DNA of 64,000 bases, from assembly GCF_023650955.1 (NCBI RefSeq), contig NZ_CP098039.1, positions 744,001 through 808,000 on the forward strand, in the 5' to 3' direction. The stretch comes from Thermosynechococcus sp. HN-54 (GTDB lineage Bacteria > Cyanobacteriota > Cyanobacteriia > Thermosynechococcales > Thermosynechococcaceae). The stretch's first letter is position 1. Each line of letters begins with the position of its first letter. The notes beneath the pieces are model-generated. The model was not told the DNA's origin and ran no database searches. It saw only the letters and a program-made list of their open reading frames with translations. Positions 27,476 through 48,554 of this stretch are shown in pieces. Position numbers and translations under genes: made by a program.

Positions 27476-27717
27476 TTAGCTCTGCTCAAAGGATTGACTC
27501 TTAAACTTGAGTGTTTTGCAATTCTCCATGACAGTACGCACGACGTTTTCTGGAACCCCTCTAGGAACCTCAGCTTCGATTTCTAGGGTAACTTTAACGG
27601 TTGCCCCATCCAAGGCAATCAGGTGTTGAATGACTTCGCTAGCGATCGTGGCCACATCTCGGTTTACCCGCAGTGGATCAAGCGCCACGTTCCCATAAAA
27701 TCTGCGGAGGATAGGGG

Positions 27718-27832
27718 GAGAGGATTGAGGAGTGAGCGGTGAGGAGTGAGCAGTGGGGGAAACTGAGCTACTCTCTGCATTCTCTTTTCTCTCTTCTCGA
27801 TTCTCTCTCCTCTCTTTATTGAGCTGTTCTTG
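27718..27832. repeat. Purine/pyrimidine-biased low-complexity insertion in DUF499
   Basis: Stretch with GAGGAGTGAGCGGTGAGGAG and then CTCTTTTCTCTCTTCTCGAT. Translated in frame as KERRENREERKENAESSS..., absent from the core domain. A similar tract is found in the helicase at 37380-37472. Confidence 0.5.
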
Positions 27833-29990: not shown

Positions 29991-30020
29991 CCCTCACCCC
30001 CAGAGGGAGAGAGGGGGGAA
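29991..30020 (+). repeat. GC-rich palindromic repeat inside DUF499 frame
   Basis: Copy of the family with core CCCTCACCCC...GGGAGAGAGGGGGG. On the minus strand it is translated as SPLSPSGGEG between LYHLF and LLPGTES of the ATPase. Confidence 0.7.
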
Positions 30021-30885
30021 GAGAAAAGATGGTACAGGGAAAGCATGGCATGGGTTTTGCCGCCACCAAAGTTGGTTTGCAGCTCAATGACAGGATCACC
30101 GCCCTGACCGCTGAGCCGTCGCAGGGCATTGGCAAGCAGTTGTTTTAGTCCTTCGGTGAGGTAGGTACGGCGATAGAATTCGGCGGGGTTGCGGTACTCG
30201 TCAGAGCCTTCGTCTAGATAGACCTGCCAGAGATCGGCGGCAAATTCGGCTTGTTGAAAGCGACCGGAGGCCACATCAGGGTGGAGGGTGGCAATTTCCC
30301 GCCAAGGCTTGAGTCCAGCCATAGGCTGCCCTTCCGTGGGTGTGGTCGTGGTGCGGCGGGTAATATTGCGCGCTTGCTCTTCAAACCGAATGCGCAATAA
30401 TTCTTGCTTTTGTTTATCAACTTCGGCAGCTTGGGGGGCAGAAATGGCGCTGAGCAGGCGAGTGATACTGTCGAGGGCGCGGTAAGCATCATCGGTAGAA
30501 AACGTATTGGTATGTGCCCATGCGTTTCGGGTTTCTCGTAACTCACTAACGAGTGCCCGTTCTGCTCTTCCTAATGTTTTCTTAAAAACATCGTGCCATT
30601 TTTCCCAAATCACAATTAAAACAGCGGATACATCCCTTTGAAGCACTTCTTCAGAGCTTTTGTTTTGGTTATATTCAGGCAGGCATTGAGCAACCTCTTG
30701 CAACCAGCGATCGCCATAGCTTGCTTTCATTTCCCGTTCAACAAAGAGATAAAGCCCTTCAAGGAGTAAATTCAGGGCGCGTCCGACTCGTTCATAGTTA
30801 CTAATGCTCATGGGTGGGTTTGGAGAGTAAAGCCTGATAAAGCTATGATAACCTCGGTTCAGGATAAGAGAAATGCTAAATTTTA

Positions 30886-30922
30886 CCTTCACCCCAGCTT
30901 TCTCCCATTCAGGGAGAGGGAG
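30886..30922 (+). repeat. GC-rich palindromic repeat, intergenic copy
   Basis: CCTTCACCCCAGCTTTCTCC... followed by GGGAGAGGGAG, between Uma2 and the DUF499 gene. It is a slightly diverged copy outside coding sequence. Confidence 0.65.
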
Positions 30923-30961
30923 CTAGACTTTAGGTTTTGTTAAACTCACAGGTTATGATAA

Positions 30962-31534
30962 CTAATCCCAAATCAGGGTTAAATCCATCACGAAGTTGGG
31001 TAATACGGGTTCTCCAGGAAGGCAAGATGGATGTTCTAAAAGTTGAACGGCTTGTCCGGGTTGATAGCAATAAACTGTTTGGGTTTCGGGAGCAATTAAC
31101 CAACCCAACTGAGCACCATTACTTATATACTCCTGCATTTTGGCTTGGAGAAAAGCAAGGTCGTCGGTGGGGGATTGGAGTTCTAGGACAAAATCGGGAC
31201 AAATGGGAGCAAATTTGCGACGTTGTTCTGGGGTTAGCTGTTCCCAGCGGCTTTTTGCAATCCAAGCGGCATCGGGAGAGCGAATGGCTCCATTGGGTAA
31301 GGCAAAGCCAGTAGAAGAATCGAAAACTACACCCAGGCGCATCTGACGATTCCACTGCCAGAGTTGCCCCAGCAAGTCAGCATTTTGGTATCCGGTTTCA
31401 CTGCCGGCAGGTGCCATAGCGATCAATTCTCCTTGAGCGGTGCGTTCCAACCGTAGGTCGGGATTGCTACGACACAGTTGCTCGAAGACTTCATCGGTGA
31501 GTTGAAGGGTGGGGCGTAGGTTCAGGGCAATCAT
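30962..31534 (-). CDS. Uma2 family endonuclease-like protein
   Basis: 190-residue protein of the Uma2/DUF820 group, a PD-(D/E)xK-fold family greatly expanded in cyanobacteria. Visible nuclease-site blocks are SPDAAWIAKSRW (Asp), PDFVLELQSPTD (the ExQ/ExK-type position) and MQEYISNGAQLGWLI. Function is not established for most members. It lies between the methyltransferase and the DUF499 gene in the same direction and may be a passenger rather than part of the system. Confidence 0.82.
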   Translation of the reverse strand: MIALNLRPTLQLTDEVFEQLCRSNPDLRLERTAQGELIAMAPAGSETGYQNADLLGQLWQWNRQMRLGVVFDSSTGFALPNGAIRSPDAAWIAKSRWEQLTPEQRRKFAPICPDFVLELQSPTDDLAFLQAKMQEYISNGAQLGWLIAPETQTVYCYQPGQAVQLLEHPSCLPGEPVLPNFVMDLTLIWD

Positions 31535-31584
31535 GGGTTTACTCTGATTATCTTTGGTTTGCAGTTTTTTTAGCCCTAGAATAT

Positions 31585-31600
31585 GCCTACAATTGTAGGC
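31585..31600. repeat. Perfect 16-base palindrome at the methyltransferase 3' end
   Basis: GCCTACAATTGTAGGC is a perfect palindrome overlapping the stop codon (31587-31589) of the restored methyltransferase frame. It could fold as a six-pair hairpin with an AATT loop. There is no T-run after it on the minus strand, so it is not a standard terminator. Confidence 0.5.
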
Positions 31601-31846
31601 TAATCTGCGCAGATGTTTGCATACTTGCGGCTAGGCGGGTAATTTCTGCCCAAGAACTCACAAGAGTGTTGTAAGCTAGAGCCTCTTGGCTCCACCCTTT
31701 GCGATCGCACAAACTATACAGCCGATAAGCCAAGTCACGGGCAATCATGGCCCGATCGCCCAATTGAGCAAAAAGTTCGGCGGCGCCGGTTTCCCCTTGT
31801 TTGTCCAAAAGTATGGATGAGCAGTTGGGTGATCAGCCAGTTGTTT

Positions 31847-31930
31847 CCCTCACCCCCGACCCCTCTCCCACGTGGGGAGAGGGAAGAAGATATGCCCTGC
31901 TCCTCCCTCGCCCTTGGGGAGAGGGCTTCC
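31847..31930 (+). repeat. GC-rich palindromic repeat plus partial second copy, in methyltransferase
   Basis: A full copy (31847-31884, CCCTCACCCCCGACCCCTCT...) and a shorter one (31901-31930). Translated on the minus strand as SLSPRGRGVGGEG before the conserved NNWLITQLLIHTFG. Confidence 0.75.
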
Positions 31931-32518
31931 CGTTTGATCAACCGCACTTTGCCGCCCTTGGCTTCCACGATGCCGGCTTCGACCATGCCCTGAACAGTGG
32001 TGTTTTTGGCTTTGCTGAGGGTTTCGGCATCGCCATAGGCGCCTGCGTTGAATTGGTGTTGCTCAAACCAGGTGAGTGCCCAGCGGGTGTCGCTGTCGAA
32101 TTCGCCTTCTTGTTCGGTGAGGTATTCGTCGAGGGTTTGGTTGATCAGTTGCAGGGCGGTGCGGACACGCAGGGGGGTGCCATTGTTTTCCAGGACGGCG
32201 GCATAGCGAGAATAGACTGCCATCCCCGGCCCAATGCTGGCTTGGGCAAGGTCAACGGGGGCAATGTTGCCCTGCTGGAGGGTACGCAGCGCTTTGGGCA
32301 GTTCGCGTTTGAGTTCGGTGAGGAATTGGCGACGGGTGATTTTGGGGGCATCCGCAGGGCGGGGACGGCAGACAAGGACAATGGAGGAGGAGAGGGCGTT
32401 GGTGCCAGATGCGACCATGCGATTACTCATTTCACTGCGCATGGGCCAGGTGCCGTCAATGGTAAAGCCAGATTGGATCAACCCTTCCAGCATCGTTTCC
32501 CAACCGGTGGAGGCTCTG

Positions 32519-32558
32519 CCCTCACCCCTAGCCCCTCTCCCAGAGCGGGAGAGAGGAA
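32519..32558 (+). repeat. GC-rich palindromic repeat in methyltransferase
   Basis: CCCTCACCCCTAGCCCCTCT... with matching GGGAGAGAGG arm; translated as PLSRSGRGARGEG. Confidence 0.75.
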
Positions 32559-33671
32559 CTAGAGGGTCGTCTATGTCTGCTTCTCCTCCTTGCTGATCGG
32601 GGGATGAGGAGTCTTCTTCTGTTTGTTTGAAAGCGTAGTAGATGGTGGTGGGGTAGTCGGCACGAGTAATTTGGTTGATGCGTTGAAACGCTTTGCCCAG
32701 ACCCGTTTCAAAAAATTCCCTCGCTTTTTCTCTGCTGCCACCAAAACGATAGGGCGTGGCGACCAATTCTTGAGCTTTGGGAACGAGCAAAGTGCTGAAG
32801 AGATCGGGATAAATAGAACTGAGAGAACGCCGCAGCCAGACATAGAAAAAATCTGCTAAGTCTGCGTAACCGATGTTGTCGTAATAGGGCGGGTCGGTGG
32901 AGATGAGTTTGGGGGTGGTGTCGTGGGGATGGGGGGCGGTTGCGTCATGTTGGGTAGCTTTTGCATAATTGTTTGGATATGCTCTATCCAAAACTTTAAT
33001 AATCCATTCAATGGCACTATTAAAGTTACCAGTCGAATCACTGAATGGATTTGCTTCTGCAAAATCCCATACCATCGGTATTGCTTGACGACCAAAAACA
33101 TGTTCAACTGCTTCTCTGGTGCTATCCCAAACAACAAGAGCCGCCCATTTATCAGCACTTCGATCGACAGCAAACGCCAGATAAGTCGCGATCGCCTCTC
33201 CATAGGCTCTTGCCCCGGTGCCGCCCTCATGCAGAGGCACATTGTCATCGGGTAGGCCAGCGGCAATGGCATCCTGAGTCGCCTTTTCCCGTGCTTCCCC
33301 CACCAAATCGCTGAAGGTGGTAAGGGCAACCAATTGACGCGGGGTGAAGAGATCGGCGTGTTTGGTCATGCCGTAAAGTGGTGCATTGATAACCCCAGAT
33401 TTACAAATAAGCTCTGTATCCGGTTTCCAAGTGGGTTGTGCTGAATTAGCAATGGCTTCTTGTTCCTCTGTGGGTGCCAGATACACCCGGCCATTTTGAC
33501 CCTCGGCGACAATGGCCATCAATTGCTGTCCCATGCGTCCGGCGCGGCCTTCTTGGCGTATATATTCCAACGGCACAGGTGTTTCGCAGGCGATGCAGCG
33601 TGCCCCTTTGCGACCTGCCGTTCCTTCAGGGGCTTTGCCTTGGCCTGATTTGACGACGAATCGAACCTTTA

Positions 33672-33713
33672 CCCCCTCACCCCCAGCCCCTCTCCCACCA
33701 GGGGAGAGGGGAG
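33672..33713 (+). repeat. GC-rich palindromic repeat in methyltransferase
   Basis: CCCCCTCACCCCCAGCCCCT... with GGGGAGAGGGGAG arm. Translated as TPLSPGGRGAGGEG, in the middle of the zinc-ribbon-like region that follows CPNPACGC. Confidence 0.78.
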
Positions 33714-33897
33714 TCAGGGTTTCTTCTTGTCCCTCTTCTCTGTTGATGGGATGGGGGTGGCGATCGATAACTGGCTCGACCCAAGCTTCTTTCCCCTTCT
33801 TCGTCGAAAGCTGAAAACTCCGTACCAAGGGCATCTGGCAGCCACAGGCGGGGTTGGGGCATTTGACCGTTCTTGCCCATAGCCAAGCGATGACGGT

Positions 33898-34479
33898 GAG
33901 GGATTCGGCCCCCTCACCCCCGGCCCCTCTGCCACGAGGGGAGAGGGGAGTTGAACTGGAAGTAAGGAAATGGGATTTAATGAGGTGGAGGCAAGCCGCA
34001 AGATCGGTTTCCACTGCCTCAGCCCTCAGACGCACGAAACGCAAACCCAGAGACTCTAATAAGCGCTGACGCTGCCGATCGAGGGCTTGCTGTTCCTCGG
34101 AGTCATGAATGGAGCCATCTACCTCAACAATCAAGCGTTCTGCGGCACAGAAAAAATCCACAACAAACGCCCCAATGGGCTGTTGCCGTCTAAACTTGCG
34201 TCCCTCCAGTTGTCCATTACGAAGAGCTTGCCAGAGAATCTCCTCACTGCGAGTTTGCCGTTTACGCAGTTGGCGAGCGATCGCTGTCATTTGTTTACGC
34301 AACGCCTCAGAAATCTCCCAACGCTCTTGCTCCCCTTCTCCCCTAGTGGGAGAAGGGGTTGGGGGATGAGGGGGAGTATGCGGGAACGGCAATTCCCCGC
34401 CAGTGGGAGCAGGGGTTGGCGGATGAGGGGGAGTATGCAGCAATTCCCCGCCAGTGGGAGAAGGAACCAGGGGATGAAG
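33898..34479 (-). mobile_element. DUF559 endonuclease-like cassette inserted in frame, bounded by inverted repeats
   Basis: A 582-base (194-codon) segment that is absent from the normal DUF1156 protein pattern. It encodes a DUF559/Vsr-type PD-(D/E)xK domain: RKRQTRSEEILWQALRNGQL, KFRRQQPIGAFVVDFFC, LIVEVDGSIHD and GLRFVRLRAEAVE; D in VVDF and E-x-D in VEVDG are the presumed catalytic residues. The left end (33909-33950) and right end (34331-34374) are copies of the GC-rich repeat in opposite orientations, CCCCCTCACCCCC... and ...GGGGGATGAGGGGG, and two more partial copies (34391-34431, 34442-34479) follow in tandem. The cassette keeps the host frame open. Reading it as a mobile or homing-type unit is inference. 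Confidence 0.72.
34331..34479 (-). repeat. Three tandem copies of the GC-rich repeat at the right end of the DUF559 cassette
   Basis: Copies at 34331-34374, 34391-34431 and 34442-34479, all in the orientation opposite to the other copies of the island. They share GGGAG(A/C)AGGGGTTGG and, in two copies, GGATGAGGGGGAGTATG. Translated as repeated PHPPTPxPT segments. Confidence 0.75.
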
Positions 34480-34625
34480 CGAACCATCGGCCGATCGGAT
34501 CACCCTCACCTGCGGGTACAGATGCCCAATCCCCTTAAATGCCTCATCGCGCATCCACTGCCCGTAGTAGCGCACATCCGCCGCCAGTCCCTGTGCCCCA
34601 TACCAGCGATTCAAGCTAGTCTCAA

Positions 34626-34708
34626 CTCCCCCTCGCCCCTTGTGGGCGAGGGGGCTGGGGGGTGAGGGATTCTCTCGACCTTGGGGAGAGGGGTTTAGGG
34701 AGTGAGGG
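34626..34708 (+). repeat. Double GC-rich repeat in methyltransferase
   Basis: Two adjacent copies (34626-34669 and 34671-34708). They add about 29 codons between APVNPEDR and LNRWYGAQGLAADVRYYG of the methyltransferase. Confidence 0.7.
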
Positions 34709-35342
34709 CGATCTTCCGGATTCACCGGAGCCTGATCCTTAAACCTTGGCGGAATCTCAATCAATGCCTTATTAATTAACACCGCCACCGGATTCAAATC
34801 ACTGGCATGGGCTTCTAGCCCCAAGCGCTGCGCCTCCAACGGGATCGACCCACCCCCCGCAAACGGGTCATACACTGGCGGGGCATACTGGGCAATGTAG
34901 TCCCGCACGGCATCTGGCTTTGTGGGTGGTTCCTCGCCCCGTTCCCACGCTAGACACCGCGCAATCTCCCGTTGGGCTGCCTCTAACACGCCCGATTTCG
35001 GATCATTGATGTCATCCCACGACACCAGCCCTCGGACGACCTGCTTCTGATTCCCTTTCTTATCCGTTTCCGTCTCAATCCGTCCCAAAATATCAAATAG
35101 CCGCTGCCGTTCCCGCGTTTGGTCTGCCTCGGTGGGGAACTTATCGGGCCAGCTACTCGGATCATCGACGAGCGAAGCCCATAGGACGGCACGACAGGCG
35201 GCTAGGGGGCGGCGTGCCCACCAGAGATGGAGGGTGCTGGGGTGCCCATGGCGGATGGATTTTTCGCGGGCAGATTCCATGTTGATGGCTTCTAGGGGCA
35301 GGGCGACTTCAATGAGCTTTTTGCGGTAGGGCATAGGAGGAA

Positions 35343-35693
35343 CTATAGAGACAATTTGAATAGCTGCTGCAAGACCGTTTTCACAGCGGTGGCATCGCGA
35401 TCGCTTAGCTGGCCAATGCTTTTGAGAATCATCGAATGATCTAACGTAAATAGCTTCATTCTAATTATTGAGGGTACTTGTAACCCAGTCGAACTCAGAT
35501 CTTGAATGAGCACATCCAAAGGCCAGGGGGAATGGGTAGCTGTGGTAATCATCGCCATAACACTGTGGCCGATGGGCGTATTGAAGCCCTTCTGATCTGA
35601 CAAAACCAAGGCTGGTCTACGCTTCGTTGCCGTTCTATCTGTAAAGGGAAACGGTACCACGACCACATCAAACTGTTCTAACTGGTTACTCAT
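35343..35693 (-). CDS. MazF/PemK family toxin
   Basis: 116-residue type II toxin of the MazF/PemK ribonuclease family. Landmarks: FDVVVVPFPFTDRTATKRRPALVLS at the N terminus with the conserved R residues, and SIIRMKLFTLD in the middle, where the catalytic Ser/Thr region lies. It overlaps the upstream antitoxin by four bases (stop 35690-35692, start 35691-35693). MazF toxins cleave mRNA. The module sits inside the defence operon between the helicase and methyltransferase genes. Confidence 0.85.
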   Translation of the reverse strand: MSNQLEQFDVVVVPFPFTDRTATKRRPALVLSDQKGFNTPIGHSVMAMITTATHSPWPLDVLIQDLSSTGLQVPSIIRMKLFTLDHSMILKSIGQLSDRDATAVKTVLQQLFKLSL

Positions 35694-35974
35694 AGATGGC
35701 TGTAGGCTAAGTCATCCGCTTCCGAATTCCACTCGATCAAGGTTGCTGCTACCGCATCGAGATAGTCGTTACCTGCGGCTGTTTCCAAGGGTTCGTTGTA
35801 GCGCAGCACAGTTCCTTGTGGGGGGGGGCTGACTTGCTCTGGCCGAGTTAATGGGTTCTCCTTCGGCTGCTCCAGAATAATGACTTCTACGGTATCACCA
35901 GTGTGAAAGGGTAATCCTTTCAGCACCAAGGTGCCATCCTCGATTAGAGTTGCTGTTAGCTTATGGGCATGCAT
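35690..35974 (-). CDS. Antitoxin partner of the MazF/PemK toxin
   Basis: 94-residue protein placed directly in front of the toxin with a four-base overlap, the usual antitoxin-toxin arrangement. The N-terminal half MHAHKLTATLIEDGTLVLKG, then LPFHTGDTVEVIIL, looks like a small beta-rich domain of the DUF2281/AbrB type, and the C-terminal half (LRYNEPLETAAGNDYLDAVA) is acidic and probably neutralises the toxin. The assignment is by position and layout. Its first 14 bases overlap the end of the MNT gene. Confidence 0.7.
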   Translation of the reverse strand: MHAHKLTATLIEDGTLVLKGLPFHTGDTVEVIILEQPKENPLTRPEQVSPPPQGTVLRYNEPLETAAGNDYLDAVAATLIEWNSEADDLAYSHL

Positions 35975-36227
35975 AGGGTTCTCCAGGTGTCATAACAACA
36001 ATATCCTTAGCCACGGGCAGATCTGCCAATACCCTATGAATAGCTATCGTTATCTCCCGCTTACTGGATAATTCTGGAAATACCACCAGCAGGTCAATAT
36101 CACTGTCAGCTGTGGCTTCACCCCTAGCGTAGGAACCAAATAAGATGATTTTGAGTGGATGAAACTGCTCAATAATGCGATCGCACATCACATTTATCCA
36201 AGGGTTGAGATTTGCAATCAAAGCCAT
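35961..36227 (-). CDS. MNT-type nucleotidyltransferase, truncated at the C terminus
   Basis: 88-residue minimal nucleotidyltransferase with the signature GSYARGEATADSDIDLLV (GS-x-ARG...SDxD) near residues 31-48, and a third Asp position in the following strand (KDIVVMTP). Family members are usually around 100 residues or more and are paired with a HEPN toxin. Here the protein ends abruptly as GEPYACP where the antitoxin gene begins, and no HEPN partner is adjacent. I infer that a HEPN-MNT module was cut by acquisition or rearrangement of the MazF module. Confidence 0.75.
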   Translation of the reverse strand: MALIANLNPWINVMCDRIIEQFHPLKIILFGSYARGEATADSDIDLLVVFPELSSKREITIAIHRVLADLPVAKDIVVMTPGEPYACP

Positions 36228-36279
36228 TGAGCCATATCCTTACGAGTGAACGGTTAATCTAAGGCAACATGCGATCGCC

Positions 36280-36384
36280 TCATAAATAGATTATCTCGAC
36301 TGTATCTCCAGCGCGGAATGGGAGGCCTTCTAGTAGAAGGGTGCCATCTTGCTTTAGAGTTACCGCTAGTTTGTGAGCATTCAT
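36280..36384 (-). pseudogene. Degenerate antitoxin copy (N-terminal fragment)
   Basis: A 34-codon frame, MNAHKLAVTLKQDGTLLLEG followed by LPFRAGDTVEIIYL, with a strong AAGGAGGG site that overlaps the end of the helicase gene. It matches the first 34 residues of the antitoxin at 35690-35974 at 23 of 34 positions by my count, then stops. It is a second, truncated copy of the antitoxin, about 300 bases upstream of the complete one. Confidence 0.7.
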
Positions 36385-36385
36385 G

Positions 36386-39300
36386 CTAACCCTCCTTGAG
36401 ATTATTTTTGTATTCTTGATGTGGGTCATAGCCATTGTCCCAAAGGTCTTGCCAGTTATAGTTGATGCTACTGGCGGCAAAATCTGGCTCCCGTTGAAAG
36501 GGCTGACGAATATAGCGCACCACACAGCCCTTGCCCTGCACCTGATAATCTCCACTCGCCTCACGCACGGCAAAGGCATCTCGTTCGGGGAAATTCTCAT
36601 CCACAGGCACCTGTACCAGGGCCAAAATATAGCAATCGGGTTTATTCAGGGCGGTCAAAATCTCGTTTTTAGTGACGGTAACTGTTTCTGCCCCTTCGAC
36701 CCGACCTTTCACCTCAATAAATCGGAGCCCCTCACCCCCAGCCCCTCTCCCACTAGGAGAGAGGGGAGCAGAGGATTCAATGTCATAGCCGCACTTCTGA
36801 TCACTCACATCCCGCGGTTCATATCCCAGCGATCGCTCCATCGCCATAACGGCTGCGATTGCCGCTCGTTCTACCCGCGTAGTTTCCTTGGCAAAGATAG
36901 GGGGGGGTGATTCTCGTTTTCCCTGTAGCCGCTGCAATAGCCCCATCGGCACCACTAGCACCGCACCCACAACCACGGGTGGCAAGGGGGATAATCGGCG
37001 TTCCTGTTCCAATTCTGCTAGACACTTTTGCAGACGTGCAGCCAACTCGTCAGCTCGTTGTTGGGCTTTGGCAGAATTGAGCTTGGCATTGGCTTTGCCG
37101 GCTTGCTCTTGTAAACGCAACTCCGCCGCCCGATGATCCCAGTAGTTAATCTCTTTGGTCAGCCGATCTTTGACGGCTCTGATCGTCTTGTCAATGAGTT
37201 CTTCCTTTTGTTGGTGGATCTCTTGAAGATGCTCAGGCACAAGACGGCAAGCCGCATAACTCATCGCGGTCTTCTCAATCTCATCTCCAGAGGGCAATTG
37301 ATCCAGCAGCGGCGCCAATAGAGGTTTTTCAGTTTCCGCCAAGGGGCGATAGTCAAGGTAAGGTGCATAACCGGCGTTTCGAGGCGAGAGAAAAGAGGCA
37401 AGAGAAGAGGAAGATAAATGGAGGCTTTGTTGCTCACTTCTCTCTTCTCTGTCCTCACTTCTTCTTACCCGCATCTCCACATACTGCATCCGCCGCGAGA
37501 CGACTCGCCGTTGCCCATCTCGCTCAACGCGGCCATCTTGGATAGCATGTTCCAAATAGACTAAAACTCTTATCTCTTCGCTGGGATCATTTTCGTCCAC
37601 CAAAATTGCCCCTCGGCGCAAAACTTCCCGATACCGTTGCAGAATCAAGTCAATGGTAACACTCAGCAAAGGGTGACCGGGGCAAATAAATTCTGCCAAG
37701 GGCTTACCAGCAACACTCATCAAGCTTTTTTCAAAGCAAACCCTCTCATACCGTTTTGGAATTGCGGCACCCATGCCAATGAGACGGTCGCGATCGCGAA
37801 TTTGCGTTGGGACATGGGTAATCTCATAGCGATTTGGTTCGCGGTGGCGAATGCTACCCCCTAGACGCTGAAATGCCTCTAGGAAAAAAGCAGCAATATA
37901 GTGAGGTTGCAGTTTGCGAGCTTCAGCCCGTTCCATTTCTTGGCGAATCTGTTGGACTTGACTGATGTCCATGGAATCACGAGCTAGTGCGCGTTCCTCT
38001 AGCAGTCTTCGTAGCCGGTTGATATCCAAGCGATTATCAATAATGGTTTCTAATTTTGCCCGCACCCGTGGCTTCTCACCATAGCGAATGGCCTCGATCA
38101 TTAACTCCCGCAACTCCTTGCCAGCGATCGCCTTCCCCAAAACATCAAAAACTTTGCCCCCTAGGGCTTGGTGCTGAATTTCTAGCTTTTTCAGTAGGGC
38201 TAAATACACATCCCCTTCACGAGTTTCCTCAGCAACCAAATTCCACAAATGACACACTTCTGTTTGACCAATGCGATGGATTCGCCCGAACCGTTGCTCC
38301 AAGCGATTAGGGTTCCAAGGCAAGTCATAGTTGATCATCAAATGTGCCCGCTGTAGGTTAATTCCTTCTCCGGCAGCATCGGTCGCAACCAAAATCTGCA
38401 CTGCTACATCTTGCTTAAAAGCTTCCTCAGCTTTTTTACGTTCTTCTCGCCCCATTCCGCCGTGAATGGCAACGACGGCTTCCTTAGAACCCAACAAATT
38501 GGTGATTTTATCAACTAGGTAGTTCAATGTGTCGCGATGCTCAGTAAAAATGACTAACTTACGCCGATGACCACCCGCATCAAACATTTCCTTCTGGTTT
38601 TGTAGGAGTTTGGATAATTCCTCCCACTTGCGATCTTGACCACTGCGCCACACCTTTTTTGCCAGTGCTTCTAGTTGACGCAGTTGCTGAATTTCCGCTT
38701 CCAGTTCAGCAATTGTTTGAGCAGCGGTTGCTTGATCAACGAGTTCTTCTTCCCATTGTTCCTGTTCTTGAGCAGATAAATCCTCCAGTGCCTCATCTGA
38801 ATCATTTGAGCACATCAGAGAAGCAGGAAAAAAGAGCTGAGAAGCGTCCCTTGTTCTGTCTGCTCGCCGCGCAATTTTTTCTTCCCGCAGTCGTTTTTCT
38901 AGCCGTTCCCGCCGGCGGCGCAGGGATTCGTAAATTGCTTGGGTGGAGGAGGCAAGGCGGCGTTGCAAAATCGTCAAGGCAAAGCCCACAGTGCCTTTGC
39001 GACGATCACTCTCTAAGGCTTCTGCACGATTAAATTCTTCCCTGACGTAATCAGTCACTCGCTTGTAAAGAGCTGCTTCCAAATCCGACAGAAGATACTT
39101 TACGGTGTGTGCTAAGCGTTCTGGAAATAAAGGTCTGCCATCAAATTTGACTAAATCTTCTTTGACGACTCGCCGCATTAAATCCGAAGCATCGCAAGTG
39201 TGTACACCGTCTCGAAAGCATCCTTCAAAGCGATCGCCATCTAAAAGTGCCAGAAATAACTGAAAATCTTCTTCTCTGCCATTGTGGGGTGTTGCCGTCA

Positions 39301-40096
39301 TCAGCAAAAAATGACGAGCGAGGGTAGATAGTAACTTACCTAACTTATAACGCTTGGTTTCTTTAATCTCGCCGCCAAAGAATGAGGCAGAAAGTTTGTG
39401 GGCTTCATCAACAACAATTAAGTCCCAATCGGTTTGTTTGAGCTTGGCTTGCAGGTCTTCATCGCGGCTGAGCTTGTCCAAGCGAGCAATCAGCAGGGGG
39501 ATTTCTGTAAAGACATTGCCGCTACGAGCTGCTTCGATTCGGTCATTCGTGAGTATCTCAAAGGGCAGGTGAAACTTTTGCGATAACTCCTCCTGCCACT
39601 GCATTGTCAAACTACCCGGGCAAACAATCAGACATCGCTGTAAATCCCCCCGCATCAGCAATTCTCGAATCAGCAACCCCGCCATAATCGTTTTGCCTGC
39701 CCCCGGATCATCTGCCAAGAGAAACCGCAACGGTTGACGCGGTAGCATCTGGCCATACACCGCTGTAATTTGATGGGGTAAAGGCTCCACCAATGAGGTA
39801 TGCACTGCTAGCAACGGATCAAATAGGTGCGCCAGTCGAATGCGGTGAGCTTCAGACACCAACCGCAATAATGCCCCGTCTCCGTCAAAACTCCAGCGGT
39901 GAGCTGCACTAACAATCTCCAAGGCGGGTTCACGATCGCGAAACAGCAGTTCTGTGTGAGGCTGTCCATTGACATCCTTATAGGTCAACTCAACAACGTC
40001 ACTTCCATACCACGTTGCGTCAATCACCGTGACAGGTTGATTTGGGAGAATGCCTTTGACCGTTGTACCGCGGGTCAGGTCTTCAAGCTTTGCCAT
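36386..40096 (-). CDS. SNF2-family helicase with C-terminal DUF3883 domain
   Basis: 1236-residue superfamily 2 helicase/translocase. Motif I is DDPGAGKTIMAG, motif II DEAHKLS, motif III LLMTATPHNG, and motif VI GRIHRIGQ after ATDAAGEGINLQ. The C terminus (about 1090-1190) is a DUF3883 domain (VERAAIAAVMAMERSLGYEP; FIEVKGRVEGAETVTVTKNE), interrupted by the repeat at 36727-36769 but still in frame. A purine-rich insertion is at about 37380-37472 (RRSEDREERSEQQSLHLSSS). The gene is first in the island operon. Together with the DUF1156 methyltransferase and DUF499 ATPase it forms the set seen in defence islands. It appears intact, unlike the other two. Confidence 0.88.
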   Translation of the reverse strand: MAKLEDLTRGTTVKGILPNQPVTVIDATWYGSDVVELTYKDVNGQPHTELLFRDREPALEIVSAAHRWSFDGDGALLRLVSEAHRIRLAHLFDPLLAVHTSLVEPLPHQITAVYGQMLPRQPLRFLLADDPGAGKTIMAGLLIRELLMRGDLQRCLIVCPGSLTMQWQEELSQKFHLPFEILTNDRIEAARSGNVFTEIPLLIARLDKLSRDEDLQAKLKQTDWDLIVVDEAHKLSASFFGGEIKETKRYKLGKLLSTLARHFLLMTATPHNGREEDFQLFLALLDGDRFEGCFRDGVHTCDASDLMRRVVKEDLVKFDGRPLFPERLAHTVKYLLSDLEAALYKRVTDYVREEFNRAEALESDRRKGTVGFALTILQRRLASSTQAIYESLRRRRERLEKRLREEKIARRADRTRDASQLFFPASLMCSNDSDEALEDLSAQEQEQWEEELVDQATAAQTIAELEAEIQQLRQLEALAKKVWRSGQDRKWEELSKLLQNQKEMFDAGGHRRKLVIFTEHRDTLNYLVDKITNLLGSKEAVVAIHGGMGREERKKAEEAFKQDVAVQILVATDAAGEGINLQRAHLMINYDLPWNPNRLEQRFGRIHRIGQTEVCHLWNLVAEETREGDVYLALLKKLEIQHQALGGKVFDVLGKAIAGKELRELMIEAIRYGEKPRVRAKLETIIDNRLDINRLRRLLEERALARDSMDISQVQQIRQEMERAEARKLQPHYIAAFFLEAFQRLGGSIRHREPNRYEITHVPTQIRDRDRLIGMGAAIPKRYERVCFEKSLMSVAGKPLAEFICPGHPLLSVTIDLILQRYREVLRRGAILVDENDPSEEIRVLVYLEHAIQDGRVERDGQRRVVSRRMQYVEMRVRRSEDREERSEQQSLHLSSSSLASFLSPRNAGYAPYLDYRPLAETEKPLLAPLLDQLPSGDEIEKTAMSYAACRLVPEHLQEIHQQKEELIDKTIRAVKDRLTKEINYWDHRAAELRLQEQAGKANAKLNSAKAQQRADELAARLQKCLAELEQERRLSPLPPVVVGAVLVVPMGLLQRLQGKRESPPPIFAKETTRVERAAIAAVMAMERSLGYEPRDVSDQKCGYDIESSAPLSPSGRGAGGEGLRFIEVKGRVEGAETVTVTKNEILTALNKPDCYILALVQVPVDENFPERDAFAVREASGDYQVQGKGCVVRYIRQPFQREPDFAASSINYNWQDLWDNGYDPHQEYKNNLKEG
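36727..36769 (+). repeat. GC-rich palindromic repeat inside DUF3883 domain of the helicase
   Basis: CCCCTCACCCCCAGCCCCTC... followed by GGAGAGAGGGGAG. Translated as APLSPSGRGAGGEG, inserted between CGYDIES and LRFIEVKGR of the DUF3883 domain without breaking the frame. Confidence 0.78.
37380..37472. repeat. Purine/pyrimidine-biased low-complexity insertion in the helicase
   Basis: Contains GAGAGAAAAGAGGCAAGAGA and TCACTTCTCTCTTCTCTGTC. In frame it adds SEDREERSEQQ followed by a serine-rich stretch, resembling the tract at 27718-27832. Confidence 0.5.
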
Positions 40097-41654: not shown

Positions 41655-42944
41655 CTAGCGATAACCATAAAAACGGGTGGCAAAGTTTTGCGATCGCGTC
41701 GGAGACAATTGACGCGCTTTCAAAATCGCGGCGGTGAGAAACACATAGGCCAAAATCCCCACCATTGCCAAGCCCATGGGACCAAAGCGGGCGGCAGCCG
41801 TATTCCAGAGGGCATGGAGAAAGGCCGCAAGACCGAGGCCAACCATTAAAATCAAGGGTGCTCGACGGGGTCGCAACACACTCAGTCCCACACAATAGCC
41901 TAAATATCCCGTGTAGGCCATGTGCCCTGTCAATGACCCCAATACCCGTGGGATCAGCACTTGCAGACCCGCTAAGTTACCAAATTGACCCGCGATATTA
42001 GGAACATATTGCCCAAGGGTTTCTGTCCACGTAAAACCGAGGCCAGCGGCTGCTCCCAAAAGAATGCCATCGAGGGGTTCCCACACACCTACCTGATGTT
42101 TCCACCGACTAGGAAGCCACCGCCCCAACCCATAGGCAACGATCATTGGCAAGGCCTTGAGTAGCTCTTCCATTAATCCGGCGCCAATGAAGTTGCGGCT
42201 GAATAACACCCAAAATGAAGGATGGGGCGGGTGCAGTTGGCCGGGTAAAACTGTGCGAAAGAGATAGATCATGGCTGGCAAAATCGGGCTTTGCAGAATC
42301 AAAATTTCCAGCGTCAGAGTGCCCAGCAGAACCCACAGAGGTTTGCGTTTGCCACAGAGTTGATAGATAAAGTAATAGGCAGCACTCCCCAAATACAGCG
42401 CCAAGATGACTTTGAAGGCATCGGGGGAGCCAGCCGTGGCAAACAGTAGGATGACGGCAACAACCGTAACAATCCCCGGTACCAGATAGGCTTTGCGCAC
42501 CCAGTCGGGATGAATGGCAAAAATAGGCAGCAGTTGGGTGAGGGTAAGAGGTTGATCGGGCTGGGTGCTCACGACTTCGGTGAGGGGAAGATATTCCAAG
42601 ACAAATTCAGGCCCTTGGCGCCCCAATTGAATGCGATCGCCCGCATTGAGCACAGTTAATGTTTCCACTCGCTGTTGGTTGACATAGGTGCCATTAACAC
42701 TCCCGAGGTCTGCGATCGCCCACACGGGAATACTCCCCCGTTTTTGACAGGTGAGTTGGGCATGGTGGCGGGAAACAGAAGTATAAATGTGGGCGTCAAG
42801 GACAATATGGCAGGTATCTGGGTCGCGGCCAATAATCGTCACCTCCTCTTGGGAGAGCCAAAACTGCGCCACTTCCGGGGAGACTTGCCGCAGCACACCC
42901 GCATACTTCAGGGTTGGATTCAGGGGGGAGCGATCGCGATTCAT
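41655..42944 (-). CDS. FHA domain fused to PrsW-type membrane protease
   Basis: About 429-residue protein. The N-terminal FHA phosphothreonine-binding domain (about 20-115) has GRDPDTCHIVLD, SRHHAQL and NGTYVNQQRV. It is followed by about eight membrane helices carrying PrsW/CAAX-protease-like motifs, including EELLKA (glutamate pair), GAAAGLGFTWTETL and the His in FLHALWN. PrsW is a site-1 protease for anti-sigma factors in Bacillus; here the role is unknown, but the fusion suggests proteolysis controlled by Thr phosphorylation. The ATG at 42942-42944 is chosen over an upstream TTG. A kinase gene lies 2.5 kb away at 45432. Confidence 0.82.
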   Translation of the reverse strand: MNRDRSPLNPTLKYAGVLRQVSPEVAQFWLSQEEVTIIGRDPDTCHIVLDAHIYTSVSRHHAQLTCQKRGSIPVWAIADLGSVNGTYVNQQRVETLTVLNAGDRIQLGRQGPEFVLEYLPLTEVVSTQPDQPLTLTQLLPIFAIHPDWVRKAYLVPGIVTVVAVILLFATAGSPDAFKVILALYLGSAAYYFIYQLCGKRKPLWVLLGTLTLEILILQSPILPAMIYLFRTVLPGQLHPPHPSFWVLFSRNFIGAGLMEELLKALPMIVAYGLGRWLPSRWKHQVGVWEPLDGILLGAAAGLGFTWTETLGQYVPNIAGQFGNLAGLQVLIPRVLGSLTGHMAYTGYLGYCVGLSVLRPRRAPLILMVGLGLAAFLHALWNTAAARFGPMGLAMVGILAYVFLTAAILKARQLSPTRSQNFATRFYGYR

Positions 42945-43127
42945 TCGTACCCATATCAACTGCAAGGGGGACAATAAGAATCTCAAAGTCCTACCTGCTC
43001 AGCACTCACACCCACTATACACTGGGTACTTGATACTTCCTTTGATCGAGAGGGCGATCGCGCCAGCACCAAGCACGAGAACACTTGGGTAGCGCTCCTG
43101 AGTAGAGGTTTGCTTTGTAACGGGGAG

Positions 43128-45431: not shown

Positions 45432-48400
45432 ATGACACCCTTGTCCATCTCTGACCGTCTTAAACGCTCTTTACGGGCTGTGATTGCGACAGCGATCGCC
45501 ACAGTGGGTGTTTTTGCCCTGCGGCTGGGGGGACTATTGGAACCCTTGGAATTGAGGGTCTATGACCAATGGCTGCGCTGGCGATCGACACTGGCCACGT
45601 CTCAGCGACTGCTGATTGTTGAAATTACCGAGGCTGATATTCAAACCCTCAAGCAGTACCCGATTCCTGACGAGGTGCTGATTCAAGCCGTCAATGAATT
45701 GCAGGAGCACCAGCCCAAGGTCATTGGCATTGACATTTTTCGCGATTTTCCCGTACCGGATCGTTTCCAGCCGCCGACCGATGTGCTCCCCTCCCTCGGA
45801 CGGGTGATGATGACCCAGCCCAACACCGTCATTGTCTGTAAAGTAGGCAGCGAAACGGATCCCGGAATTGCCCCACCCGCTGGACTGCTGAATGAACAGG
45901 TGGGATTTGCGGACATTCCCATTGATGATGATGGCGTTGTGCGCCGTGCTATTTTGGCAACTCAACCAGAAGCTAGTGATCGCTGCGCTACTCCTCAATC
46001 CTTTGCCCTTGCTTTGGCGCGTGTTTTTCTGGGGATTAATCCCCAAGCTGTGACTCAGAACCGCCTTGAATTGGGAACGGCTCGCTTTCAGGCCTTGACC
46101 AGCAACTGGGGGGGCTACAACAACCTAGATGCCGCGGGGTTTCAAATCCTGATCAACTATGCCCACCCAACCCAGCCCTATGAAACCGTGACCCTGAGCG
46201 AAGTCTTGAGTGGTAAAGTACTACCCTCTAAAGTGCGCGATCGCGCCGTCCTCATTGGCCTTACGGGCAGCAGCAGTAATGACAAGTTTTTGATTCCGAT
46301 TACACTGCCGGGACAAACCAACCGCCTTACCCCCGGTGTTGTGGTTCAAGCCGTCATTCTTGAGGATCTACTGGCGGCGGCACTCGATAACCGTTCTCCC
46401 ATGGGCACATGGTCGCAGGAGGCGATCGCCCTTTGGATGCTTGCTTGGTCTGCACTGGGTGCTCTGATTATTGCCAAGGGACACCGCTGGGTGATTGTGC
46501 CGCTGTTGGTTGCGGGGGGGCTGGGTCTCAGTGGCCTCACTTTTCTTCTCTTTTTACAGGGAAGTTGGATTCCACTCGTGGCTCCTCTGGTTGGCTTTGG
46601 CAGTGCTGCGGTGGTGATGCTGGGCTATCGAGCCTTGAGTCCTACAGAATCTACCCCTACCCCCTCTGCACCGACGGCTGTTCCCAGTGGCCTCTCAGCG
46701 ACTCCCTTAGAGTTGGTTAGTGAGGGGATCAGTCAATCGACCGCACCTGAATTCAACCCGCTTCTAGAGACGCCAGAAACCGCTTCACCAACGGAAGTAT
46801 CTGCCTTAGAAACTGATGCCAATCCCACGGTATTGCAACCGGAAAGCGCCATTTCCTTTACCCCCATTGAGCCAACGGTATTACCGCCAACCCCCGGCAA
46901 GCCCAACACAGCACCAACACTGCTGACATCTGTGGTGGATCAAATTCCGCCGACAGAAATCCGCGAGACACCAGCCGCCTCGATCGCAGAGAGGGAAACC
47001 TTTTTAGTGGCTCAACCGGATGAAGCGGCAACTCCCGTCACAGAATTGCCCCCCTCCACTGCTGCTGAATCCACGACTGTCGATCTGCCTGAAACCCAGA
47101 TGGCGGTTCCTGAACCCCAAACCTCTCCCCCACCAACCGCTGCTGCAGACATGCCCACGCAGATGCCGCCAGAGCTATCGGAAACGCAACTGACGGTTCC
47201 TGAACCCTTAACCATCGTTCCGGAGACGCCGAGCATCCCCAGTGCTACTTTGCCTGAAACCCAATTGACGGTTCCTGAACCCCTGACCACGCCAGAACTC
47301 AGCTCAACACCCGCGACCCAGTTCATCACCAGTGTGGACTTGCCCGAAACGCAACTCTCTATCCCTGCAAGCTCGCCAGAATTCACCTCAACACCTGTGA
47401 CGGGGAGAGAAATTCCTGAAACGCAACCATCCATTCCAGAGACCTCACCGAACCTCACCTCAACCCCGCCCACCCAATTTGTGACCAGTGTAGACCTACC
47501 AGCAACCCAATTGTCACTCTCAGAACCCGCTGCCACCAGTGATGACTTGCCTGCAACCCAGCCAGCCAATCCTGACCCTGTGATGCCGCCACTCCCAGAG
47601 ACTGTGCCCACGCAGCTTTCAGAGGTGACCCCTGCCACAACAGTTCCTTCGCCGGCACCCCCCACCACCCAAACACCCAGCAGTAGCCAACCGCAGACTA
47701 CTGTCATTTCCGAGATCACTACAGAACCCGCTGAACCGCTGCCCCAAACAGTCGGCGGACGGTACCGCGTCCTCAGTCAACTGGGGGAAGGGGGATTTGG
47801 CCGCACTTTCTTGGCTGCGGATTTACACCTGCCGGATCATCCCATTTGCGTGGTCAAGCAGTTGGTCCCCTCCCGTAAGGATGAACGTTTTTTGGCCATT
47901 GCCCGTCGCCTCTTTCAGCGGGAAGCGGAAACCTTAGCCCAATTGGGGCAACATGAGCGGATCCCGCGATTACTGGCTTACTTTGAGGAGGGGGGATATT
48001 TCTATCTCACCCAAGAGTATGTGGATGGGGAATCCCTCAAGGAGGAGTTTGAAAAGAAAATTACCCTCTCCCAAGCTGAAGCCCTCGCCATTCTCAAGAG
48101 TATTCTAGAAATTTTGCAGTATGTACATCAGTTTGGGGTGGTGCATCGGGATATTAAACCTGCCAATATCATGCGCCGCCGCAGTGATCAGCAACTGTTT
48201 TTGATTGACTTTGGAGCGGTACGCCATGTCCAGCCCGAGGATTTGCTCCAACACGGCAAATATACGATCTCAATTGGTACCCGTGGCTATGCCCCTAGCG
48301 AGCAAATGGCAGGACGACCCGTGATTGCCAGTGATATTTACTCTCTGGGCATGGTTATTGTTGAAGGTCTGACGGGACTCGCCCCGATGGATTTGCCCTC

Positions 48401-48554
48401 TGACCCCCACACGGGGGATATTGTCTGGCAGCCGGGACGGCATCTTTCACCGCAGTTTGTTGCCATTATCAATAAAATGATTAAGTACAACTTTCGCGAT
48501 CGCTACCAGAGTGCTGAAGACGTGCTCACTGACTTGGTCAAATCTGGACTTTAA
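45432..48554 (+). CDS. CHASE2-domain Ser/Thr protein kinase with TQ-rich linker
   Basis: 1040-residue receptor-type kinase. An N-terminal membrane helix is followed by an extracytoplasmic CHASE2 sensor domain (about 35-300), a group of two to three helices (about 325-400), a linker of about 370 residues rich in Pro, Thr, Glu and Ser, and a Hanks-type kinase domain from about 775. Kinase motifs: GEGGFGRTFLA, the Lys in VVKQL, HRDIKPANIM near 904, DFGAVR near 926. The linker contains many diverged units of the form LPETQLTVPEPLT, each with a TQ pair. Kinase substrates are not known. An FHA-PrsW gene lies nearby. A short frame at 45247-45435 upstream is not considered real. Confidence 0.85.
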   Translation: MTPLSISDRLKRSLRAVIATAIATVGVFALRLGGLLEPLELRVYDQWLRWRSTLATSQRLLIVEITEADIQTLKQYPIPDEVLIQAVNELQEHQPKVIGIDIFRDFPVPDRFQPPTDVLPSLGRVMMTQPNTVIVCKVGSETDPGIAPPAGLLNEQVGFADIPIDDDGVVRRAILATQPEASDRCATPQSFALALARVFLGINPQAVTQNRLELGTARFQALTSNWGGYNNLDAAGFQILINYAHPTQPYETVTLSEVLSGKVLPSKVRDRAVLIGLTGSSSNDKFLIPITLPGQTNRLTPGVVVQAVILEDLLAAALDNRSPMGTWSQEAIALWMLAWSALGALIIAKGHRWVIVPLLVAGGLGLSGLTFLLFLQGSWIPLVAPLVGFGSAAVVMLGYRALSPTESTPTPSAPTAVPSGLSATPLELVSEGISQSTAPEFNPLLETPETASPTEVSALETDANPTVLQPESAISFTPIEPTVLPPTPGKPNTAPTLLTSVVDQIPPTEIRETPAASIAERETFLVAQPDEAATPVTELPPSTAAESTTVDLPETQMAVPEPQTSPPPTAAADMPTQMPPELSETQLTVPEPLTIVPETPSIPSATLPETQLTVPEPLTTPELSSTPATQFITSVDLPETQLSIPASSPEFTSTPVTGREIPETQPSIPETSPNLTSTPPTQFVTSVDLPATQLSLSEPAATSDDLPATQPANPDPVMPPLPETVPTQLSEVTPATTVPSPAPPTTQTPSSSQPQTTVISEITTEPAEPLPQTVGGRYRVLSQLGEGGFGRTFLAADLHLPDHPICVVKQLVPSRKDERFLAIARRLFQREAETLAQLGQHERIPRLLAYFEEGGYFYLTQEYVDGESLKEEFEKKITLSQAEALAILKSILEILQYVHQFGVVHRDIKPANIMRRRSDQQLFLIDFGAVRHVQPEDLLQHGKYTISIGTRGYAPSEQMAGRPVIASDIYSLGMVIVEGLTGLAPMDLPSDPHTGDIVWQPGRHLSPQFVAIINKMIKYNFRDRYQSAEDVLTDLVKSGL

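What the first reader, a model, noticed from the sequence alone, without database searches (positions are those of the whole stretch)
46640..47760. TQ-rich repeat linker in a CHASE2 kinase
Between the membrane helices and the kinase domain there are about eight diverged repeats of the type LPETQLTVPEPLT, each with a TQ pair and hydrophobic residue at +2 to +3. They may be tandem phosphorylation sites serving as docking places for FHA proteins, similar in idea to SQ/TQ cluster domains.
Basis: partly seen in the sequence, partly recalled or inferred. Interest (0 to 1): 0.5.

Follow-up and report, generated by a model that had tools for sequence, protein, structure and literature searches.

The report
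Threonine-rich linker in a bacterial kinase
A cyanobacterial membrane kinase carries a floppy linker in which the threonines followed two positions later by a greasy residue have been kept during evolution while most of the linker changed, which suggests (but does not prove) that they are phosphorylated docking sites.

Summary
The repeats are real. The gene at 45432-48554 (+) encodes a 1040-residue kinase: CHASE2, membrane helices, a 371-residue linker and a C-terminal Hanks kinase. The linker has 12 TQ pairs (3.6 expected; 3 of 100,000 shuffles reach 12) and seven diverged LPETQL-type units (aa 552-717). The better description is Thr-x-hydrophobic: hydrophobics are enriched most at T+2, depleted at T+3, and not enriched at Ser+2. 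Thr in that context has as few replacements relative to silent changes as the kinase domain (0.20 against 0.21); the linker's other Thr give 0.62. The rule holds outside the TQ block and in two sister genera lacking the TQ units (G026 clear; G028 alone p 0.062). A plain spacer does not explain this. Best reading: a multisite phosphorylated Thr array read by FHA proteins, in outline like the PknB juxtamembrane segment with FhaA or the MST2 linker with SLMAP. Phosphorylation and FHA binding are inferred. An FHA-PrsW gene lies 2.4 kb away, but that closeness is lost in two of the congeners. T+2 does not match the usual FHA pT+3 rule, and Ser is the commonest replacement at the sites. New variant of a known kind.

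The parts
45432..48554 (+). CHASE2 membrane Ser/Thr kinase, 1040 aa
   Evidence: ORF; Pfam CHASE2 and Pkinase
45498..46466 (+). CHASE2 sensor domain, aa 23-345
   Evidence: Pfam PF05226, E 2.2e-58
46416..46637 (+). three predicted helices (aa 329-348, 355-383, 385-402), taken as membrane helices after CHASE2
   Evidence: helices in a low-confidence AlphaFold2 model; hydrophobic sequence; membrane assignment is inference
46635..47747 (+). predicted disordered linker, aa 402-772, with 29 Thr-x-[LIVMF] sites
   Evidence: composition, pLDDT about 25-37 with no secondary structure, site count
46701..47000 (+). Thr-x-hydrophobic islands without Gln: T424 (ATPLEL), T466 (PTVLQP), T482 (PTVLPP), T496 (PTLLTS), T523 (ETFLVA)
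   Evidence: T466, T482, T496 and T523 are Thr in all ten genus sequences aligned, T424 in eight
47085..47120 (+). TQ unit 1, LPETQMAVPEPQ, aa 552-563
47175..47210 (+). TQ unit 2, LSETQLTVPEPL, aa 582-593
47250..47285 (+). TQ unit 3, LPETQLTVPEPL, aa 607-618
   Evidence: T610 is Thr in all ten genus sequences aligned
47340..47375 (+). TQ unit 4, LPETQLSIPASS, aa 637-648
47412..47447 (+). TQ unit 5, IPETQPSIPETS, aa 661-672 (Pro at T+2)
47496..47531 (+). TQ unit 6, LPATQLSLSEPA, aa 689-700
47547..47582 (+). TQ unit 7, LPATQPANPDPV, aa 706-717 (Pro at T+2)
47697..47717 (+). juxta-kinase island TTVISEI; T756 and T757 are Thr in all ten genus sequences aligned
47763..48521 (+). Hanks-type kinase domain, aa 778-1030, with HRDIKPAN and DFG present
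   Evidence: Pfam PF00069, E 2e-37; sequence
41655..42986 (-). FHA domain fused to a PrsW-type membrane protease; a candidate phospho-Thr reader, two genes away
   Evidence: Pfam FHA and PrsW; neighbourhood

Best explanation
The linker is a flexible arm carrying some 20-29 short Thr-x-hydrophobic sites. When the CHASE2 domain activates the kinase, the kinase domain (in trans within a dimer, or a sister kinase) phosphorylates several of these Thr. The phospho-Thr then act as redundant docking points for one or more of the cell's FHA-domain proteins, bringing substrates or regulators to the membrane kinase. Shown: the repeats, the T+2 hydrophobic pattern, the purifying selection on Thr in that context, upkeep of the rule in G026 (and in G026 and G028 pooled) where the TQ units are absent, a kinase in the same chain, and 23 FHA domain matches in the genome. 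Inferred: topology, disorder, phosphorylation, the FHA reader, and activation through CHASE2.
For: T+2 hydrophobic enrichment z +5.0 in the window and +13.1 pooled over ten genus sequences that are not independent; Ser+2 -1.1 and -1.5. Thr in Thr-x-hydrophobic context: 28 replacement against 110 silent codon differences (0.20), like the kinase domain (155 against 587, 0.21); other linker Thr 116 against 70 (0.62); linker Ser 0.71. Outside the TQ block, mean conservation 0.95 (14 sites) against 0.49 (12 sites), p 0.0001, and no effect for Ser. Sister-genus linkers G026+G028: T+2 19 against 8.5, p <= 0.001, no other Thr offset tested below p 0.17. Pooled over the window, G001 and G028 linkers, a hydrophobic at +2 follows 60 of 135 Thr against 16 of 86 Ser, Fisher p 8e-5. 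Disordered flanks of 93 other kinase ORFs (12 segments, 688 aa): T+2 16 against 7.9, z 2.9, while non-kinase ORFs gave z 1.0. Precedents: PknB juxtamembrane segment with FhaA, and seven phospho-Thr in the StkP juxtamembrane segment (PMC12077195, passages); the autophosphorylated MST2 linker bound by SLMAP FHA, Kd 0.16-1.1 uM (PMC5663475, passages); in vivo phospho-Thr in the cyanobacterial kinase SpkC (PMC4379935, one section and passages). FHA count.
Against: No phosphorylation or binding data for this protein. FHA selectivity is usually discussed at pT+3 (PMC5549992 passages), and here T+3 hydrophobics are depleted. None of the four localised SpkC phospho-Thr has an aliphatic residue at +2 (my reading of the peptides). 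The signal in the 93 other kinases falls to z 2.4, 2.2 and 1.6 with laxer disorder cut-offs. G028 alone is not significant at T+2 (7 against 3.9, p 0.062), and Ala+2 reaches p 0.046 in the G026+G028 pool. Weaker hydrophobic enrichments also appear at T-3 (+4.3), T+4 (+2.7), T+5 (+3.0) and S-1 (+4.1) in the genus pool. The +2 residue itself is kept hydrophobic no better than other linker hydrophobics (0.79 against 0.77). Disordered parts found in the FHA-protein ORFs of 20 own-genome loci show no T+2 enrichment (4 against 4.7; T+1 11 against 4.8). The FHA-PrsW neighbour is not beside the kinase in G001 or G008.
Confidence: 0.47

Rival explanations
1. The Thr-x-hydrophobic sites are phosphorylated, but the phosphates act by charge and stiffness (a counting switch that frees or restrains the kinase domain) or recruit something other than an FHA protein.
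For: Same constraint on Thr. In S. pneumoniae StkP, phosphorylation of the juxtamembrane segment affects assembly of the division machinery and the segment is likely not needed for activation (PMC12077195 abstract and passages). T+3 lacks a hydrophobic signature. FHA neighbour not beside the kinase in G001 and G008. Ser is the commonest replacement at the sites (6 of 28), which a charge switch would allow.
Against: Ser is not used in the motif overall (S+2 not enriched; Ser sites not more conserved), and a pure charge switch does not explain a hydrophobic at +2.
Confidence: 0.23
2. The unmodified Thr-x-hydrophobic strands are docking motifs for a non-phospho partner, such as a beta-strand-adding or PDZ-like domain, or the kinase's own substrate cleft.
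For: Short hydrophobic strands spaced in a Pro-rich chain are typical of linear docking motifs; ETQL/ETQV resembles the class I PDZ ligand pattern (recalled). Linker Pro is also fairly constrained (0.38).
Against: Class I PDZ ligands are C-terminal and accept Ser (recalled); these sites are internal and Ser is not enriched in the motif.
Confidence: 0.15
3. Passive Pro/Thr-rich spacer with a drifting low-complexity repeat.
For: Linker length and TQ number vary among the ten genus sequences aligned (297-371 aa, 4-13 TQ); strong GC skew in the block; many linker residue classes are replaced often.
Against: Thr in Thr-x-hydrophobic context is about as constrained as the kinase domain; the rule reappears in linkers without the TQ units and outside the repeat block.
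Confidence: 0.12

Closest known systems
PknB juxtamembrane domain with FhaA (Mycobacterium tuberculosis); StkP juxtamembrane domain (Streptococcus pneumoniae)
   Same: Segment between membrane helix and Hanks kinase; seven Thr phosphorylated in StkP; in PknB the phosphorylated segment is read by an FHA protein (PMC12077195 passages)
   Different: Kinase domain is N-terminal there (recalled), C-terminal here; different sensor domain; no Thr-x-hydrophobic array was mentioned in the passages seen; here phosphorylation is unproven
MST1/2 (Hippo) linker with SLMAP FHA
   Same: Kinase whose own linker carries seven repeated Thr motifs (TM), autophosphorylated and redundantly bound by an FHA domain (PMC5663475 passages)
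   Different: Eukaryotic; linker C-terminal of the kinase; proposed SLMAP consensus E/D-G-pT-M-x-R/K, not Thr-x-hydrophobic
MDC1 TQXF repeats with RNF8 and Pellino FHA
   Same: Repeated TQ sites read by FHA domains (PMC11884936 passages)
   Different: Phosphorylated by ATM; hydrophobic (Phe) at +3, here at +2; MDC1 is an adaptor, not a kinase
Cyanobacterial CHASE2 kinases (cbSTKII), e.g. the two listed for Thermosynechococcus elongatus BP1
   Same: CHASE2 plus Hanks kinase (PMC2176072 passages; Pfam)
   Different: Five other cyanobacterial CHASE2-kinase fusions read here have linkers of 57-83 aa without the array

Membership tests
CHASE2 Ser/Thr kinase | CHASE2 domain and Hanks kinase in one chain | tested here: met
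   Pfam PF05226 and PF00069 above cut-off
CHASE2 Ser/Thr kinase | catalytic HRD and DFG motifs | tested here: met
   HRDIKPAN and DFG read in the sequence; HRD and DFG invariant in the 11-row alignment A1
SQ/TQ cluster domain | several SQ/TQ within about 100 residues (definition recalled) | tested here: met
   six TQ at aa 555-640
SQ/TQ cluster domain | both SQ and TQ used | tested here: not met
   SQ 2 against 2.1 expected
SQ/TQ cluster domain | phosphorylated by an ATM/ATR-family kinase | not tested
   no search for such a kinase was made
Phospho-docking juxtamembrane linker (PknB/FhaA type) | disordered segment between membrane helix and kinase | tested here: inconclusive
Phospho-docking juxtamembrane linker (PknB/FhaA type) | evolutionary constraint on Thr at candidate sites | tested here: met
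Phospho-docking juxtamembrane linker (PknB/FhaA type) | phosphorylated on Thr | not testable with these tools
   needs mass spectrometry
Phospho-docking juxtamembrane linker (PknB/FhaA type) | bound by an FHA protein | not testable with these tools
   23 FHA domain matches exist in the genome; no binding data
FHA ligand (usual rule) | selective residue at pT+3 | tested here: inconclusive
   hydrophobics depleted at T+3 (8, z -2.0); acids at T+3 slightly over-represented (13, z +1.9; genus pool z +2.3); known +3 residues include D, S, M and V

The most novel reading that the evidence does not exclude
Cyanobacterial receptor kinases carry their own multivalent phospho-Thr docking array with a Thr-x-hydrophobic code that differs from the pT+3 rule: a bacterial counterpart, arrived at independently, of the MST2 linker with SLMAP, with a dose-like read-out set by the number of sites (18-29 in the ten genus sequences aligned).
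Probability: 0.35. Interest if true: 0.62.

Novelty: new variant of a known kind. Interest (0 to 1): 0.45.

Why it matters
The genome studied has 13 kinase matches above cut-off and 23 FHA domain matches, and which FHA protein reads which kinase is not known to me for this group. A linker in which evolution has marked the sites gives a defined set of peptides to test against all FHA domains of a small (2.7 Mb) genome. If the Thr-x-hydrophobic rule proves to be a phospho-docking code, it can be used to look for kinase-FHA pairs in other cyanobacteria, and it would show a second origin of multisite self-docking linkers in kinases.

Tried and rejected
DNA-level tandem repeat: rejected; no array is reported in the linker.

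TQ as the essential element: rejected. Islands without Gln are conserved, the Gln after Thr is not specially kept (23 replacement to 12 silent), and the sister genera lack the TQ units while G026, and the pool with G028, keep Thr-x-hydrophobic.

Another protein with the same motif: a pattern for PETQ followed by L/V/F-type codons, searched over the whole own genome, gave 5 matches against 4 for the reversed control; two lie in this gene, and the other three are in a frame that I read as PurD-like and in two short frames. No shared partner was found this way.

The adjacent FHA-PrsW gene as the proven partner: not accepted. It occurs in 23 of 29 genomes of the order, more than hold the kinase orthologue (13 of 29 at E <= 1e-100). 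In the 11 genus genomes it lies close to the kinase in the window and in 6 others, about 10 kb away in G004, far away in G001 and G008, and cannot be placed in G006.

Long-linker orthologues elsewhere in cyanobacteria: 12 of 194 class genomes (the window's own included) at E <= 1e-94, all in the window's genus plus two sister genera; only 4 candidates per genome were scored, so this is a lower bound. A scan of named genomes kept 80 loci, mostly paralogues; of 93 kinase ORFs in them, six also had CHASE2, and the five with the domains in the expected order had linkers of 57-83 aa.

LPxTG-like sortase signal, PDZ ligand, LC8-type TQT motif: considered from memory and set aside (internal position, supposed cytoplasmic side, little use of Ser, or eukaryote-only partner); none was tested by a search.

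Naming the organism: attempted through L116 (Thermosynechococcus sp. WC_1), no usable overlap. A Thermosynechococcus-like cyanobacterium is my guess from genome size and gene content.

Disordered segments of FHA proteins as a second home of the motif: no T+2 enrichment in the 7 segments (342 aa) found in the 20 own-genome FHA loci held, L034-L053.

Odds: on rereading (Ser is the commonest replacement at the sites) I lowered the best explanation from 0.50 to 0.47 and raised the charge-switch rival from 0.20 to 0.23.

Full report
What is there. The gene at 45432-48554 (+) encodes 1040 residues. Pfam places CHASE2 at aa 23-345 and a protein kinase at aa 778-1030. Between them lie three predicted helices and then a linker, taken as aa 402-772, of 18% Thr and 20% Pro. 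The linker contains 12 TQ pairs at aa 555-746 and seven units of the type LPETQLTVPEPL. TQ occurs 12 times against 3.6 in shuffles of the same linker (3 of 100,000 shuffles reach 12); [LI]P[EA]TQ occurs 6 times against 0.017 (0 of 100,000). Tandem Repeats Finder reports no DNA array there, and the units' synonymous codons agree in 43 of 90 comparisons (31.1 expected from codon usage), so the protein motif has outlived most of the DNA likeness.

The better rule. Scoring offsets from -6 to +8 around Thr and Ser, hydrophobics are most over-represented at T+2 (29, z +5.0 in the window; z +13.1 pooled over ten genus sequences that are not independent), under-represented at T+3 (z -2.0 and -4.9), and not enriched at S+2 (z -1.1 and -1.5). 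Weaker hydrophobic signals in the pool are T-3 (+4.3), T+4 (+2.7), T+5 (+3.0) and S-1 (+4.1). Other signals around Thr in the pool include Gln at +1 (+12.1) and +8 (+7.8), Pro at -2 (+10.4), acid at -4 (+12.0), -1 (+6.2) and +3 (+2.3) (all). Sites without Gln obey the rule too: SATPLEL, NPTVLQP, PTVLPP, PTLLTS, ETFLVA, TTVISE. The window linker has 29 such Thr sites and 6 such Ser sites; the ten genus sequences have 18-29 and 3-6.

Selection. Comparing the window with nine congeners codon by codon, Thr in Thr-x-hydrophobic context shows 28 replacement and 110 silent differences (0.20), like the kinase domain (155 and 587, 0.21). Other linker Thr give 0.62 (116 and 70), linker Ser 0.71, other linker hydrophobics 0.63, hydrophobics at T+2 0.48, Gln after Thr 0.66, linker Pro 0.38, CHASE2 with membrane helices 0.35. 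Conservation of Thr is higher with a hydrophobic at +2 (0.87, 28 sites, against 0.53, 30 sites) and does not depend on any of the eight other offsets tested at p < 0.05; for Ser no offset tested reaches that level (lowest p 0.059, at -2). To exclude misalignment of repeats, the TQ block was left out: 0.95 (14 sites) against 0.49 (12), p 0.0001; there +1 (5 sites, p 0.009) and +3 (3 sites, p 0.04) also show an effect on very few sites. These tests count sequences that share ancestry, so the p values are optimistic. Two results qualify this: the +2 residue is kept hydrophobic in 0.79 of cases, no better than other linker hydrophobics (0.77), and where these Thr are replaced, Ser is the commonest replacement (6 of 28, against 15 of 116 at other Thr).

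Turnover. The ten other genus genomes all hold the gene, one (G006) split over contigs. Nine were aligned with the window and the sister-genus G028 sequence. In those ten genus sequences linker length ranges over 297-371 aa and TQ number over 4-13. In the class, 12 of 194 genomes, the window's own included, have a match at E <= 1e-94: genomes of this genus and two sister genera, G026 and G028 (a lower bound since 4 candidates per genome were scored). The two sister linkers lack the TQ units but together show hydrophobics at T+2 19 times against 8.5 (p <= 0.001), no other Thr offset tested below p 0.17, Ser+2 not enriched; G026 alone 12 against 4.5 (p 0.001), G028 alone 7 against 3.9 (p 0.062); Ala+2 reaches p 0.046 in the pool. 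In the disordered flanks of 93 kinase ORFs from the loci (titles mostly cyanobacterial; L141 and L161 bear other names) the T+2 count is 16 against 7.9 (z 2.9; 12 segments, 688 aa) with a strict disorder cut-off and z 2.4, 2.2 and 1.6 with laxer ones; non-kinase ORFs give 1.0, -0.2, -0.6 and -0.6.

What reads it. The genome has 23 FHA domain matches and 13 kinase matches above the Pfam cut-off. One FHA protein, fused to a PrsW-type membrane protease, is encoded at 41655-42986 (-), with a pseudouridine synthase gene and a UbiA-family gene between it and the kinase (I read these as rluD- and chlG-like). Within the fetched stretches it lies beside the kinase in six of nine congeners; in G004 it is about 10 kb away, and in G001 and G008 it is elsewhere in the genome; the gene itself occurs in 23 of 29 genomes of the order. 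It is a candidate, not a demonstrated partner.

Mechanism. The preference for Thr, the kinase in the same chain and the array layout fit a multisite phospho-Thr docking segment. Precedents seen in passages: PknB's phosphorylated juxtamembrane segment binds FhaA, and StkP's has seven phospho-Thr (PMC12077195); MST2's linker autophosphorylates at several TM motifs (seven shown) and is bound by SLMAP's FHA with Kd 0.16-1.1 uM for three sites (PMC5663475); MDC1's TQXF repeats bind RNF8 and Pellino FHA (PMC11884936). In a cyanobacterium, SpkC carries localised phospho-Thr at 291, 297, 312 and 319, one of them in a TQ pair, and SpkF has an unlocalised event in a Pro/Thr-rich peptide (PMC4379935, section 19 and passages); by my reading none of the four SpkC sites has an aliphatic residue at +2, so these data support multisite Thr phosphorylation of such kinases but not the +2 rule. 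The usual FHA rule concerns pT+3 (PMC5549992 passages), which the array does not follow with hydrophobics. The +2 hydrophobic may therefore reflect the kinase's own preference, or an FHA domain of unusual selectivity.

Limits. The AlphaFold2 model is poor overall (mean pLDDT 40.8, 11 sequences), so low confidence in the linker (about 25-37) is only weak support for disorder. Membrane topology is inferred. The genus is unnamed by the tools. The paper searches made in the held library listed, among the rows shown, no paper whose title or abstract start concerns this linker or a Thr-x-hydrophobic code in CHASE2 kinases; that is a statement about those listings only. Passages of PMC6213207 and PMC6733907 were also seen and not used.

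Noticed in passing
window 27476-40096 (-): Hma-type (helicase-methylase-ATPase) defence genes by PADLOC: HmaA-like 36386-40096, HmaB-like 31735-35334, HmaC-like matches split over two neighbouring ORFs (29858-30892, whose N-terminal part matches Swt1-like HEPN, and 27476-29842); a Uma2 gene at 30962-31534 lies next to them.
   Followed up: partly
window 31735-35334 (-): The HmaB-like (DUF1156) reading frame holds several in-frame copies of a G+C-rich palindromic repeat, read as LSPxGRGAGGEG-type peptides, and between them an in-frame DUF559 nuclease domain (aa 348-453); it looks like a small repeat-and-nuclease insertion inside a defence gene that kept the frame.
   Followed up: partly
window 41655-42986 (-): FHA domain fused to a PrsW-family intramembrane protease; matches in 23 of 29 genomes of the order, some covering only the protease part; a pairing of a phospho-Thr reader with a membrane protease.
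   Followed up: partly
window 47012-47719 (-): A 235-aa open frame lies antisense to the TQ block; probably a by-product of the biased composition there.
   Followed up: no
G000:C1:1501716-1502531 (-): A further kinase domain of the same genome is interrupted by one TGA, a possible pseudogene.
   Followed up: no
L042, L044, L048 (own-genome FHA proteins): Some FHA proteins themselves carry short Thr motifs in disordered parts (ATQLHSE, PQTVVDL, EETQFNA), although T+2 enrichment over the disordered parts examined was not seen.
   Followed up: partly
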